Positions 30,843-35,545 of a DNA stretch of 64,000 nt are shown here, piece by piece. Below the pieces are notes generated by a model. That model had not been told where the DNA came from and ran no database searches. It worked only from the letters and a program-made list of their open reading frames with translations. Both the position numbers and the translations under genes were made by a program. This DNA is from Desulfocarbo indianensis. Lineage in GTDB: Bacteria; Desulfobacterota; Desulfarculia; Desulfarculales; Desulfarculaceae. The stretch spans positions 958,001-1,022,000 of the forward strand of contig LBMP01000001.1 in assembly GCA_001184205.1 (NCBI GenBank), given 5' to 3'. Within the stretch, counting starts at the first letter, position 1, and every line of letters begins with the position of its first letter.

Positions 30843-31113
30843 TAGTGTTTTTATTCGTAATTCATGCATGTTGCGGTCTTGACGCCGCTTTGCTCCGCGC
30901 GTCAAAGTATTTTTGGGTTAACAAACCCAATGGGCAAGATACTATTTTGCAATCCCCGTCAAGTCTGACAGCATTGGGAAAATCAGCAAAATAAAAAACA
31001 CCTTCCCCGTCGCTGGGTGGCCGTAGGCCCTTTCAGGATCGCTTACGTCCTTGCAAAACAATTTCAGCCTATCTGCCTGTCAGCCAACGCCCCCAACAGG
31101 CGCGGAGTGGTGT
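30843..31113. other. AT-richer non-coding gap
   Basis: No gene is supported here. Composition changes clearly towards AT after the paaK terminator. Two inverted repeats are visible: arms TTGACGC/GCGTCAA at 30879-30905, and TTGGGTT/AACCCAA around a four-base loop at 30913-30930. Either could be a terminator or regulator site. The gap ends with GCGGAGTGG before the peptidase start. Confidence 0.5.
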
Positions 31114-31755
31114 ATGGCCGGCAAAAAGGCGATCACGGCAGGTTTGATTTTATACTTCATCATGCTGGGCTGGTCGCCAGGGGGCGGGTTGCACGCCTCG
31201 GCGGAGAAGCGGCTCGTCCCAAGGCACTCCCAAAATAAACCAGCGCTGGATTCAAGATGGGAGCTCATTGCGCGCCAGGAATTTGATTACTCTTGCGGCG
31301 CTGCGGCCTTGGCTACTCTGCTACGTCTTCAATTCAAGGAAAGCGTCACGGAAAACCTGGTTCTAAATGAGATAATGCGCGGCCTTTCCAAGAAGCAAAT
31401 CGCCGACCGCCGGAAGCATGGCTTATCCTTGTTGGATTTAAAGAAATATTCCCGCGGAAAAGGCTATTCGGCGGTCGCCCTCATCCTGGACGTCAGCGCC
31501 CCATTAAAGCTTGGAATGCCGATAATTGTCTTGCTTGATAACGGTATGTCGCAACATTTCGCAGTGTTGAAGTGCATTCAAAAGGGGAAGGCCTCCTTAG
31601 CTGATCCCGCCAGGGGCAATATCCAAATACCTATAAAGCTTTTTCTACAGGAATGGCGTGGGGTGGCTTTGGTTTTAGAGCGTGAGTCGCCTCGTCGGGG
31701 CTTGGCGGACAAACCTTTAAGCGGCTTTGAGAAGCAAGCGCCAATCAGGCGCTGA
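31114..31755 (+). CDS. Secreted C39-type cysteine peptidase
   Basis: A 213-residue peptidase with an N-terminal export signal (LILYFIMLGWSPGGGLHASA). The C39 core is clear: catalytic Cys61 in QEFDYSCGAAALATLL, His148 in NGMSQHFAVLK and Asp164 in LADPARG. No ABC transporter domain follows, unlike bacteriocin exporters; it resembles free periplasmic C39 peptidases such as FapD of functional-amyloid loci. Codon use is more AT-rich than in flanking genes. The next gene starts 73 bases on and encodes a possible substrate. Confidence 0.85.
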   Translation: MAGKKAITAGLILYFIMLGWSPGGGLHASAEKRLVPRHSQNKPALDSRWELIARQEFDYSCGAAALATLLRLQFKESVTENLVLNEIMRGLSKKQIADRRKHGLSLLDLKKYSRGKGYSAVALILDVSAPLKLGMPIIVLLDNGMSQHFAVLKCIQKGKASLADPARGNIQIPIKLFLQEWRGVALVLERESPRRGLADKPLSGFEKQAPIRR

Positions 31756-31827
31756 CTTGAACAGGGAATGAGCGACATGGTGCCGCTTATTTCTGGTTAT
31801 CATAACCTTGGAAAAGGAGAGCCTGTC

Positions 31828-32331
31828 ATGAGAGCGAATTTTGTATTGAAAATCGGCTTGATGCTGTGCTTAACGGTTGCGTTGACCATTGGCGTGGCGG
31901 CTGCCCAACAACCAGCCATGCTGCAAACCTTGGCTGATTCCGGCATGGTCGTACAAGTGCTTGATGACCACGCCATGGCGCAACTACGCGCCAAGGATAT
32001 CTATTTCATAACACTGCAACACGATTTTTCAATATGGTACAATTTCTATAAAAATGGCGTATATCAAACCACCTACCACAAGGCTACTTATACAATAAAT
32101 CCCGGTAAAACAAAAACCAGGCCTGGCGATCATGCCTACATCAAGGAGAGCGATAACACGTTGGTTTTTTCCCGCGATCGCACAGATCCATCGGATGTAG
32201 ATGTAATAAGCGGCGTTGCGCTAGTAATTTGGGATGACTATGAAGATGAAGGCTATGCCCAAGTTAATGGTGAGCAAGTTCATAAAATTACGCCGATAGA
32301 TGATCCCAATGGCCAAGATTTATACTACTAG
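31828..32331 (+). CDS. Small secreted protein beside the C39 peptidase
   Basis: A 167-residue protein of unknown family with a signal peptide (residues about 8-26). The mature protein begins with a helical stretch and the motif VLDDHAMAQLRAKD (45-58), which is reminiscent of the short leader-like motif with small residues found in some C39-processed secreted proteins. The remainder is beta-like and rich in Tyr, Asp and Thr (FYKNGVYQTTYHKATYTI). No cysteines are present in the mature part. GGAGAGCC precedes the ATG. Being a substrate of the adjacent peptidase is an inference. Confidence 0.62.
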   Translation: MRANFVLKIGLMLCLTVALTIGVAAAQQPAMLQTLADSGMVVQVLDDHAMAQLRAKDIYFITLQHDFSIWYNFYKNGVYQTTYHKATYTINPGKTKTRPGDHAYIKESDNTLVFSRDRTDPSDVDVISGVALVIWDDYEDEGYAQVNGEQVHKITPIDDPNGQDLYY

Positions 32332-32390: not shown

Positions 32391-33611
32391 TCAAACGGTT
32401 TTGTTGACTAATACGCCTGGATCAGATTTAGAGGGCGGCGCAGTGGTGGAAACGGCTGTGTCGCCCTCTTTTGGGTTAAGAGAGTCAAGAAACTCATCAT
32501 AAAGTTTATCCATGTCGTACATATAACCGCTGTCGCTTTCCAGGTAGCTGTCTTGTTCGCGAAGGGCCTTCCAGTTGAACTCGACTTCGCATGAAAACTT
32601 TTTATATTCAGGCATGGGTTCCGATATGTCCACATCACTGAATACTGCGCGGTCGCCGAATCCATTTTGGTAGTAGGGAGCCACTTTTTCGTTTATGGAG
32701 TCAACCAGATAGCTGTTTAAAAAGCCAACCGCTTCCCTGAGACTTTCCATCCCTTGCTCACCATAGACGATACTTAGCGCACGGGCCATGCCTTGCTCAA
32801 AAACGCCTTCATCAGACATGTTTTCAAGGTAAGAGGCTGCGTCATCGGATTTAATTTGATCCCTGAAAAAGTCGATGACCGGTTGTAGGTCTTCACGTAT
32901 CTTATCGGTTGTGAAATTGCAGGCGCCGCTGATGAAGCTATGGGATCCATCCGGATGGCTAACATATCTTAAGCCGCGTTCCACAACGATTCTTCCCGAG
33001 TCTTCGCGGACAGCGGAATGTGAAACAAATTGCTTTACGCGGGCGGTCATGCCGGAAGAGCTGAACTCCACCTCATAGTCGAAATACTTGGCCATGGCAT
33101 ATGAGATGCTGTATATTCTGCCGTTTTGTTCAGGGCCGGGCTCGCTGAACAATTCTTTTAGGTCTTTGTCCCACTCATTAATAACATCGGAAAATTGGCT
33201 CGAGCCGTACTCGGCACATACATGCTCCAGTACCACGCACAAACCGCCGCCCAAGCTATAATCGCTAAAACCCTGGGAAGTGCTTTGCAACACCATGGCC
33301 ATGGCCGCGTTGGCGGCTTCAGCGCCCAAACGCTCCTCCAATCCATCTATGGTGCTGGTCAAAGAGTCCAGTAAGGGTTGGTAATCTTTTACCTCGCCTT
33401 GCTTGTCCTCGACCGGGGCCGCGGCCATGCGGCGCTCCATCTCCGCTGTGAAGCGCTCCCGGACGCTGGTCTCGGAATTTTGATCAGCGGCGGACGCTTC
33501 ATTCGCGGATGCCAGGACAGGTTCCTGAGGTTCTTTGGCGGGTTTGTTGATGCGAAGGTTGTAGAGAGAACTATTAGCGAACGCATTGATTTGGCAGGCT
33601 TGAAGTCTCAT
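32391..33611 (-). CDS. Unknown protein, 406 aa, with a sigma-28 promoter
   Basis: I do not recognise a family. The protein is soluble, without signal peptide or membrane segment, mostly acidic and helical. It starts MRLQACQINAFANSSLYNLR, followed by a disordered acidic linker and a longer structured part from about residue 75 (LLDSLTSTIDGLEERLGAEA). The start is the ATG at 33611. A near-perfect FliA-type promoter lies 32-59 bases upstream, so it is expected to be expressed with late flagellar genes. The DUF115/Maf-type gene upstream is consistent with a motility link. Confidence 0.7.
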   Translation of the reverse strand: MRLQACQINAFANSSLYNLRINKPAKEPQEPVLASANEASAADQNSETSVRERFTAEMERRMAAAPVEDKQGEVKDYQPLLDSLTSTIDGLEERLGAEAANAAMAMVLQSTSQGFSDYSLGGGLCVVLEHVCAEYGSSQFSDVINEWDKDLKELFSEPGPEQNGRIYSISYAMAKYFDYEVEFSSSGMTARVKQFVSHSAVREDSGRIVVERGLRYVSHPDGSHSFISGACNFTTDKIREDLQPVIDFFRDQIKSDDAASYLENMSDEGVFEQGMARALSIVYGEQGMESLREAVGFLNSYLVDSINEKVAPYYQNGFGDRAVFSDVDISEPMPEYKKFSCEVEFNWKALREQDSYLESDSGYMYDMDKLYDEFLDSLNPKEGDTAVSTTAPPSKSDPGVLVNKTV

Positions 33612-33642
33612 GGATCCCCCCCGGTTTCCTGGTATGGTTTTC

Positions 33643-33670
33643 TTATCGGCAAAATGTTCTGAAAACTTTA
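33643..33670 (-). promoter_or_regulatory. Sigma-28 (FliA) promoter
   Basis: On the minus strand TAAAGTTT (33663-33670) is followed after 12 bases by GCCGATAA (33643-33650). Both boxes match the enterobacterial FliA consensus TAAAGTTT-N11-GCCGATAA exactly; only the spacer is one base longer. It points at the unknown 406-residue gene. This is the strongest regulatory match in the window. Confidence 0.85.
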
Positions 33671-33736: not shown

Positions 33737-35503
33737 TTAGATGGTCTCCGGCCGTCCCATGCGGCGGGCGAAACCGGCCATGGCGCGCCGGTCGCCGTGG
33801 CCGGCGGCGTCGGCCAGCTCCTGCAGGGAGGCGGCCACCTGCTTGAGCCCGCCGGCCATGGCCTGGCCCTTGTTCTCCAGATCGGCCAGGCAGAGGTTTA
33901 GCTGGCGGCAGGCCTCGCGCAGGCTGACCCCATGCTCCCTGCCCTTGCACACCAATTGATGCCGCCGTAAAAAGGCCCGCACCAGGCAGCCCTCCAGATA
34001 GGCGGCCTGCAGGGGATCGGCGGCGGCCTGCTCGGCCAGGGCCACGAAAAGCTTGTCCGCCGCGGTGAGCCAGGGGCTGGCCTCCTCCGGCTGGGCCGGG
34101 GGGAAGTCGGCCAGGGGGGCGGCCGCCCGCTGCCAGAGCCGGGTGGCGCTGCCGGCGGCGGCGGAGAGTTCGCGGGCGTAGGCGCTGAGTTCGGCCAGAC
34201 TGAGCCAGCGCTCCTCGCTGAGGGCGGGCAGGGTCAAGGGCTGGCCCGGGGTGAACAGCTCGGAGACGGCCTCCAGGCCGGTCAGGCGGGCGCCGGGCAG
34301 GCCCAGGCCTCGGGCCGCGGTGTTGAGGGCGGTGCCGCCGGCCCTGGCCAGGACCTGGCCCAGGGAGCAGGCCGCCGCCGCCTGGTCCAGTTCGGCGCGG
34401 ACCATGCCGCCGCTCATGCCGGGCATGGTCAGCCGGCCCGAGGGGCTGGTGAGGTCGGCTCCCACCAGGACGATGGGCTTGCAGCCCAGCATGATGGCCA
34501 ATTCGGTCTGGCGGCCCAGGGTGTGGTGCTGGGGCGTGAAAAATTGGGCCAGGGGCTTGAAGGGGCCCAGGGCGGTGCCCCGCGCTCCCAGGCATAAGAA
34601 GCGCGGGCCGGGGTGGGCGCGCAGGGTGGGGGCGTGGGCCACCTCCTCGGCGATCAGGGGAACCCGCTCCAGGTCCGGATGGCAATAGCAGGACAAGCGC
34701 CCCAAAACCGGCCTGGTGCTGACCACGGCGGTGGGGATGATGCCCGCCTCCAGCACCTGGGGCAGGGCCTCGTCGCTGGCCAGCACGGCCGCCCCGCCCA
34801 GGCGCCCGGCCAGCCGCTCCAGGGCCGGGCCCAGGGATTCGCCCGCCTCCATGATCACCGCCGGCCTGCCGTGGCAGGCGTCGATGATTTCCAGGGCCCG
34901 CCCCATGAACACCACCTGGCTGAGGTTGTTCACCAGGTTGGCGCCCCGCGGCTCTTCCCAGCGCAGGGCCAGATCGCGGGCCTTCAAGGCCTGGCCCAGC
35001 ACCCGGTAGAGCCGGGCCCATACCGCCGCGGCCCCGCCGTCGAAATCGTCCCCGGCCAGGTGAAGAAACTCCACCTGCTCGGCCAGGGCCAATTGGGGAT
35101 GGCGGGAGAGGGCCTCCTCCAGGGCGCACTCATGAGGCGCCAGAATCACCAGGTCGCCCTCGCGCAGATAGGTGGTCAGATCGTGGCGGCCCAGGCCGTT
35201 GGCCAGGAGCCGGGCCCGGGGCTCCAGCACGAACACCTGATGCCCCGGCGGCATGGTGTTCATGAGCCGCCGCACTTCATGCAGGGAGCCGCCGCCCACC
35301 ACCACGGTGATGCCGCCGGTTTGGGGCTGATGCTCGGGAGAGGGGACGGGGCCGTCCGCAAGCGCGTCCAGGTCGTCCGGCAGGCCGGAGGCGTCCCACG
35401 CTTCGCCGGCCATCTCCAGCCAGCAGGACACCTCGGGAGCCACCGCGGCCAGCATGGTGAGGTTCTTCTTCAGGATTTGCAGAGAAAAGGCGCTATCCCC
35501 CAC
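33737..35503 (-). CDS. DUF115/Maf-type motility-associated glycosyltransferase-like protein
   Basis: A 588-residue soluble protein of the DUF115 (MptE-like) family, whose bacterial members (Maf) put nonulosonic sugars on flagellin. The family core around residues 165-420 includes RGANLVNNLSQVVFMGRALE, a VIMEAGESLG stretch, and QTELAIMLGCKPIVLVGADL. I prefer the GTG at 35503 because GGGAGG is eight bases before it; a GTG nine bases earlier overlaps that site. Located downstream of a secreted and an SH3-domain gene, and upstream of a sigma-28 gene, its motility role is inferred. Confidence 0.82.
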   Translation of the reverse strand: MGDSAFSLQILKKNLTMLAAVAPEVSCWLEMAGEAWDASGLPDDLDALADGPVPSPEHQPQTGGITVVVGGGSLHEVRRLMNTMPPGHQVFVLEPRARLLANGLGRHDLTTYLREGDLVILAPHECALEEALSRHPQLALAEQVEFLHLAGDDFDGGAAAVWARLYRVLGQALKARDLALRWEEPRGANLVNNLSQVVFMGRALEIIDACHGRPAVIMEAGESLGPALERLAGRLGGAAVLASDEALPQVLEAGIIPTAVVSTRPVLGRLSCYCHPDLERVPLIAEEVAHAPTLRAHPGPRFLCLGARGTALGPFKPLAQFFTPQHHTLGRQTELAIMLGCKPIVLVGADLTSPSGRLTMPGMSGGMVRAELDQAAAACSLGQVLARAGGTALNTAARGLGLPGARLTGLEAVSELFTPGQPLTLPALSEERWLSLAELSAYARELSAAAGSATRLWQRAAAPLADFPPAQPEEASPWLTAADKLFVALAEQAAADPLQAAYLEGCLVRAFLRRHQLVCKGREHGVSLREACRQLNLCLADLENKGQAMAGGLKQVAASLQELADAAGHGDRRAMAGFARRMGRPETI

Positions 35504-35545
35504 CGGTTGCACCTCCCGATACCGATGGCAAACGATGCGCGAATT

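What the first reader, a model, noticed from the sequence alone, without database searches (positions are those of the whole stretch)
32391..33670. Unknown gene with near-perfect sigma-28 promoter
Both FliA boxes match consensus exactly, with a spacer one base longer. The downstream 406-residue protein has no recognised family, so it is a good candidate for a new late-class flagellar or chemotaxis component. The upstream DUF115/Maf gene supports a motility context.
Basis: partly seen in the sequence, partly recalled or inferred. Interest (0 to 1): 0.7.

Follow-up and report, generated by a model that had tools for sequence, protein, structure and literature searches.

The report
Flagellar-regulon protein, probably flagellum-exported
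A gene of unknown family carries a perfect switch for the last stage of flagellum building; relatives in a dozen bacterial genera carry the same switch and a similar protein ending, so it is probably an accessory protein made with, and perhaps pushed out through, the flagellum.

Summary
The ATG-started 406-aa ORF (33611 to 32391, minus) lies 31 nt after TAAAG-N15-GCCGATAA (33670-33643), the window's only exact match (0 in 100 shuffles). The "one base longer" spacer is the norm in this genome (6 of 6 exact sites). No Pfam or NCBIfam family fits.

The gene has relatives: 29 of 63 genomes of its class and one genus elsewhere in the phylum. Of 54 relatives with enough upstream DNA, 39 carry a FliA site matching at least 11/13 positions, against 0 of 54 on the opposite strand and 5 of 273 control ORFs. 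FliA control is therefore conserved family-wide.

The family reads leader, helical domain D1, zero to two D2 modules, then a conserved C-terminal tail (here GVLVNKTV). Similar tails end unrelated FliA-driven proteins: 11 of 30 clusters against 3 of 280 control ORFs. SprA-related proteases of this class also have FliA sites (13 of 13 readable), and a Campylobacter SprA-related protein needs the flagellum for secretion (PMC5223770).

Best reading: accessory late-flagellar protein, probably a flagellar-export substrate. FliA control is near certain; export is inferred.

The parts
33666..33670 (-). -35 box TAAAG of the FliA promoter
   Evidence: exact match
33643..33650 (-). -10 box GCCGATAA of the FliA promoter; TAAA-N16-GCCGATAA overall
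   Evidence: exact match
33616..33622 (-). run of seven G that could serve as Shine-Dalgarno, 5-11 nt before the ATG
   Evidence: sequence read; inference
32391..33611 (-). coding sequence, 406 aa (P0001); no same-strand gene follows closely, so probably monocistronic
33471..33611 (-). N-terminal leader, residues 1-47, predicted disordered, no hydrophobic Sec-type stretch by eye; proposed export signal, inferred
   Evidence: pLDDT < 50 over residues 1-47; N-terminal motif statistics
33078..33470 (-). helical domain D1, about residues 48-178
   Evidence: found in 53 of 56 family members; helices
32622..32924 (-). helical module D2, about residues 230-330
   Evidence: found in 35 of 56 members, twice in 5 long ones
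32394..32417 (-). C-terminal tail GVLVNKTV, last 8 residues
   Evidence: conserved G-x-L ending in the family alignment; tail counts
33737..35512 (-). upstream neighbour, DUF115/MptE-like (PF01973); not considered part of the system
   Evidence: GC contrast

Best explanation
The gene is a class-3 (late) gene transcribed by FliA from its own promoter once the hook is finished. Its product is an accessory, non-core protein of a family so far unnamed. Shown here: the promoter, its family-wide conservation, the domain layout, and the conserved tail. Inferred: the protein has no Sec signal, uses its disordered N-terminal segment as a flagellar type III export signal, and leaves the cell through the flagellar channel at the stage when flagellin is exported. 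D1 and D2 are the cargo that acts outside or on the filament. The C-terminal tail, shared in form with other FliA-driven proteins, would serve a common step such as chaperone or export-gate binding, or filament-associated retention.
For: FliA control; conserved upstream of relatives found by protein similarity (39 of 54 at >=11/13, 24 at >=12, 8 at 13; opposite strand 0 of 54; control ORFs 5, 0 and 0 of 273), with at least one >=12/13 site in each of the 12 genera that have members. Exact sites in the class precede flagellins, FliD-like, FlgM, FlaG and SprA-related genes. Flagellar coupling: the family occurs in 28 of 53 flagellin-bearing class genomes and 1 of 10 without flagellin, that one being a match with two stops inside and a 69-aa open frame (Fisher p 0.013). 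Export: N-terminal flagellin-type motif GL[RSKQN][IVLM] in 23 of 50 members against 11 of 280 control ORFs and 5 of 283 internal windows, in five members at residue 35, where the seven flagellins examined have GLR[IV]. FliC residues 1-47, and by some reports 26-47, direct flagellar export (passages in PMC6337784). SprA-related proteins share the regulon (13 of 13 readable with FliA sites >=11/13); their C. jejuni relative CJM1_0395 reaches the supernatant only with a flagellum (PMC5223770, passages).
Against: P0001's own best flagellin-like segment (NAFANSSLYNLRINKPAKEPQE) is not significant: 29% of shuffles score as well, so the motif evidence comes from relatives. By the flagellin profile only 10 of 50 members pass the controls' 99th percentile. 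15 of 54 members have no site >=11/13, several of them in genus g17. FliA control does not prove export: one 12-member FliA-driven cluster has tail-less, often acidic ends and may be cytoplasmic. The C. jejuni SprA protein carried a C-terminal FLAG tag and was still flagellum-dependent (methods and figure legend passages), so a free C-terminus is not needed there. The co-occurrence test is confounded, since 8 of the 10 flagellin-less genomes are one genus. The structure model is poor (mean pLDDT 53.9).
Confidence: 0.55

Rival explanations
1. A FliA-driven cytoplasmic protein (regulator, chaperone or motor-associated factor) that never leaves the cell.
For: Some FliA-driven families look cytoplasmic: a 12-member ~150-aa cluster without the tail. 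P0001 has no Sec signal by eye and no secretion domain; its export motif is not significant on its own.
Against: A long disordered leader and very variable length and paralogue number (up to several per genome) are unlike a motor or regulator; N-terminal flagellin-type motif in many relatives.
Confidence: 0.27
2. A minor structural element of the filament or hook-filament junction, assembled rather than released.
For: Conserved N- and C-terminal ends around a variable middle recall axial proteins; the FliD-like proteins of the regulon end in a similar I-[DNSEG]-x-Y-Y; one rod-like protein (Flg_bb_rod, L167) has the same kind of tail.
Against: No flagellin, hook or rod domain. Absent from many flagellated relatives, so not needed for assembly.
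Confidence: 0.12
3. The promoter match is coincidence and the gene is transcribed otherwise.
For: 19 reversed-pattern matches in the class show that some exact sites arise by chance; read-through from the DUF115 gene cannot be excluded, as no terminator-like site was found between the two genes.
Against: Family-wide conservation, 24 of 54 at >=12/13 against 0 of 273 controls.
Confidence: 0.03

Closest known systems
SprA-related metalloproteases (PF12118; C. jejuni CJM1_0395)
   Same: FliA site upstream in this class (13 of 13 readable); in part similar C-terminal tail (own genome: NPLSKTV); N-terminal NALASNGLSVGLR stretch of some members resembles P0001's NAFANSSLYNLRI by eye; the C. jejuni relative is flagellum-dependent in the supernatant (PMC5223770)
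   Different: P0001 has no HExxH motif and no PF12118 match; its body is predicted helical and of another family
Campylobacter flagellar co-expressed determinants (Feds) and Cia/FspA secreted proteins
   Same: sigma-28-coupled or flagellum-secreted accessory proteins (described in the passages of PMC5223770; primary Fed paper not held)
   Different: no sequence comparison was made; another phylum; secretion of P0001 untested
Flagellin
   Same: FliA control; GL[RKQ][IM] motif at residue 35 in five relatives of P0001, the same residue as in flagellins
   Different: no flagellin domain; motif not significant in P0001 itself

Membership tests
FliA (sigma-28) late-class gene | TAAA / GCCGATAA boxes at accepted spacing ahead of the gene | tested here: met
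FliA (sigma-28) late-class gene | FliA and flagellin encoded in the genome | tested here: met
FliA (sigma-28) late-class gene | promoter kept across relatives | tested here: met
   39 of 54 against 0 of 54 and 5 of 273
FliA (sigma-28) late-class gene | transcript lost without FliA | not testable with these tools
   needs a mutant
Flagellar type III export substrate | disordered N-terminal export segment, no Sec signal | tested here: inconclusive
   residues 1-47 pLDDT < 50 in a poor model; Sec signal judged by eye only
Flagellar type III export substrate | flagellin-type export motif | tested here: inconclusive
   enriched in relatives; not significant in P0001
Flagellar type III export substrate | flagellum-dependent presence in supernatant | not testable with these tools
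   experiment needed
SprA-related (PF12118) | family profile and HExxH motif | tested here: not met
   no HExxH in the translation
Flagellar axial protein (rod, hook, HAP, flagellin) | corresponding Pfam/NCBIfam domains | tested here: not met
Chemotaxis protein | MCP, CheW, receiver or similar domain | tested here: not met

The most novel reading that the evidence does not exclude
In these bacteria a short C-terminal tail, roughly [VILF]-[DNSE]-x-x-[VAILG]-COOH, is a portable tag on many unrelated FliA-driven proteins, P0001's family among them. Together with a flagellin-like leader it would mark a flagellar secretome recognised by one common chaperone or export component, with P0001's family as a large modular branch of it.
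Probability: 0.3. Interest if true: 0.78.

Novelty: new member of a known kind. Interest (0 to 1): 0.52.

Why it matters
Non-flagellar cargo of the flagellar exporter is known mainly from Campylobacter (my general knowledge). A conserved FliA-driven family in another phylum, with a recurrent C-terminal tail on unrelated regulon members, gives a testable list of candidate flagellar secretome proteins and a candidate shared signal. It also shows that promoter conservation across relatives can place proteins that no profile library names.

Tried and rejected
DUF115/Maf as motility context: rejected as weak (GC contrast, no flagellar family in the neighbours, flagellar genes elsewhere). Fold-based identification: AlphaFold2 on four sequences gave mean pLDDT 53.9 and Foldseek had no match above probability 0.10 in the 50 rows shown; not interpreted. 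Solved-structure profile search: best E 0.078, rejected. PHROGs: E >= 0.04 only. Flagellin-type export motif in P0001 itself: tested and not significant. PDZ-ligand or protease-degron readings of the tail: considered, no consistent position, not pursued. A 'YjfB-like' label for L005, L112 and L123 came from recall; Pfam did not confirm it. The tail regex was shaped on the class data, so its class figure is post hoc; it was fixed before the outside-class set was read: 5 of 39 ORFs there against 3 of 280 controls, and two of those five (L216, L229) do not look flagellar. One of the three control hits (L203, ending INVTV) has no FliA site. Literature: searches found nothing describing this family or a shared tail; that covers only this library, these terms, and the listings seen.

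Full report
OBSERVATION. The 406-aa ORF starts at ATG 33611 and stops at 32391 on the minus strand. Upstream lies TAAAG-N15-GCCGATAA (33670-33643), exact in both boxes, with the -10 box ending 31 nt before the ATG. It is the only exact match in the window; none of 100 shuffles has one. The window genome has six exact sites, all TAAAG and all with the same spacing, against two for the reversed pattern, so the spacer is normal here. In 63 genomes of the class the exact pattern (14 or 15 nt after TAAAG) occurs 123 times against 19 for the reversed pattern (my sum over).

REGULON CHECK. I read what lies downstream of these sites. In the window genome: a SprA-related protein (PF12118, E 2.9e-30), a FliD-like protein, a 61-aa protein, P0001, a 141-aa ORF ending GGVVLSETA that resembles L176 by eye, and one site (L002) without a clear gene. 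Across the class, 119 unique sites were read; the other four of the 123, in G022, G029, G039 and G040, lie ahead of P0001 relatives and were read elsewhere. Of the 119, 70 had a credible complete ORF and 49 were dropped for lack of one. The targets include flagellins, FliD-like, FlgM (1.1e-19) and FlaG (1.9e-8). The site is therefore the working FliA promoter of these bacteria.

FAMILY. P0001 has no Pfam match at E<=1 and nothing near cut-off in NCBIfam. A search of 60 relatives gave matches in 11 genomes including its own. A profile of seven members found the family in 29 of 63 class genomes and in 9 of 395 genomes drawn across the phylum, three of them outside the class, all of one genus. 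One member lies in CP026657.1, Deltaproteobacteria bacterium Smac51, and two more loci in metagenome-assembled Deltaproteobacteria. That G003 is Desulfarculus baarsii and that many carriers are termite-gut lineages is my recall, not a call. In the window's own family only its genome and G006 have members.

PROMOTER CONSERVATION. These relatives were found by protein similarity alone. Of 56 members collected, 54 have at least 200 nt upstream. In the 350 nt before the start, 39 of 54 have a site matching >=11 of 13 positions, 24 have >=12 and 8 have 13; the opposite strand of the same DNA gives 0, 0 and 0. Upstream of 273 control ORFs from twenty 20-kb stretches the numbers are 5, 0 and 0. All 12 genera with members have at least one member at >=12. 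This is the strongest result here. 15 of 54 members have no such site; 7 of these are of genus g17.

ANATOMY. Profiles cut from the alignment show D1 in 53 of 56 members and D2 in 35, with two D2 copies in five long members. Short members of about 235-300 aa keep the tail. The AlphaFold2 model (four sequences) is poor overall, with helices best in residues 50-134 and 235-310 and disorder at both ends; no structural match is usable. Invariant near the C-terminus are G399 and L401.

TAIL. With the first regex ([VIL][DNSE]..[VAIGL] at the very end), 40 of 54 family ORFs not cut at the 3' end match, against 3 of 280 control ORFs. At the level of unrelated clusters of FliA-driven proteins in the class, 11 of 30 have a tail majority (regex widened to [VILF][DNSE]..[VAILG]), p 3e-10 against the controls; the regex was shaped on these data. 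In the outside-class set, read after fixing the regex, 5 of 39 ORFs (4 of 30 clusters) match, p 0.0009 by ORF, but two of them do not look flagellar. SprA-related proteins were found by profile regardless of promoter: 16 of 63 genomes. 13 were readable by my rule; 3 were dropped because no HExxH-bearing frame was found. All 13 have a FliA site >=11/13 (opposite strand at most 9), and 5 of 13 match the tail by my reading. The tail is not universal: flagellins, a 12-member cluster and the SprA-related proteins of family f4 lack it.

LEADER. GL[RSKQN][IVLM] occurs in the first 60 residues of 23 of 50 members (six short or broken ones left out of the 56), 11 of 280 control ORFs, and 5 of 283 internal windows. 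In five members it sits at residue 35, where the seven flagellins examined have GLR[IV] in RLSSGLR[IV]N. A gapless flagellin 26-47 profile passes the controls' 99th percentile in 10 of 50 members against 6 of 230 internal windows. P0001 itself does not pass: 29% of shuffles do as well. FliC 1-47 directs flagellar export, while reports on 26-47 alone conflict (PMC6337784, passages).

FLAGELLUM LINK. Flagellin is present in 53 of 63 class genomes. The P0001 family is in 28 of these and in 1 of the 10 without flagellin, G028, where the match has two stops and a 69-aa open frame; Fisher p 0.013. Eight of the ten are one genus, so this is weak. In print, the C. jejuni SprA-related protein CJM1_0395 is absent from the supernatant of an flgG mutant in two strains (PMC5223770; abstract and passages). 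This does not concern P0001 directly; it shows that a co-regulated family can be flagellum-secreted.

ORIGIN. P0001 (GC 0.505) and the convergent neighbours at 31051-32331 (0.53, 0.45) stand in a 0.65 window next to a 0.72 gene. With the patchy distribution this suggests lateral acquisition.

VERDICT. FliA control: about 0.95. Accessory late-flagellar family: about 0.9. Export through the flagellum: about 0.55-0.6, inferred. The shared tail as a functional tag: about 0.3.

Noticed in passing
window 31051-32331, plus strand: C39-type peptidase (PF03412, 2.2e-17; FapD/FilB-like by NCBIfam, below cut-off) followed by a 187-aa ORF with a signal-like start; both low in GC and convergent with the studied gene.
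   Followed up: partly
L120 and relatives (72 aa), 14 members downstream of FliA sites: Small unnamed FliA-driven family MLVSSDFLGYLNRKK... ending STVNVVL; 14 of 14 match the tail pattern; no Pfam or NCBIfam match for the representative L120.
   Followed up: partly
L085 and relatives (about 130-220 aa), 12-13 members downstream of FliA sites: Second unnamed FliA-driven family, MADRVGQIGQLVRTLGSQL..., without the tail; no Pfam or NCBIfam match for L085.
   Followed up: no
L282-L297: SprA-related proteases of the class: 13 of 13 readable members have a FliA site of >=11/13 upstream.
   Followed up: yes
L116 (G024:C34:20642-20704): Array of four overlapping exact FliA sites formed by a 12-nt repeat, close to the contig end.
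   Followed up: no
L050 (G028:C127:32466-32861): Broken family member in a genome where no flagellin was found.
   Followed up: partly
L167 and L276: Small proteins (117 and 112 aa) behind FliA sites, ending HLDLIG and TLDIKA; L167 matches Flg_bb_rod and Flg_bbr_C, L276 looks alike by eye.
   Followed up: no
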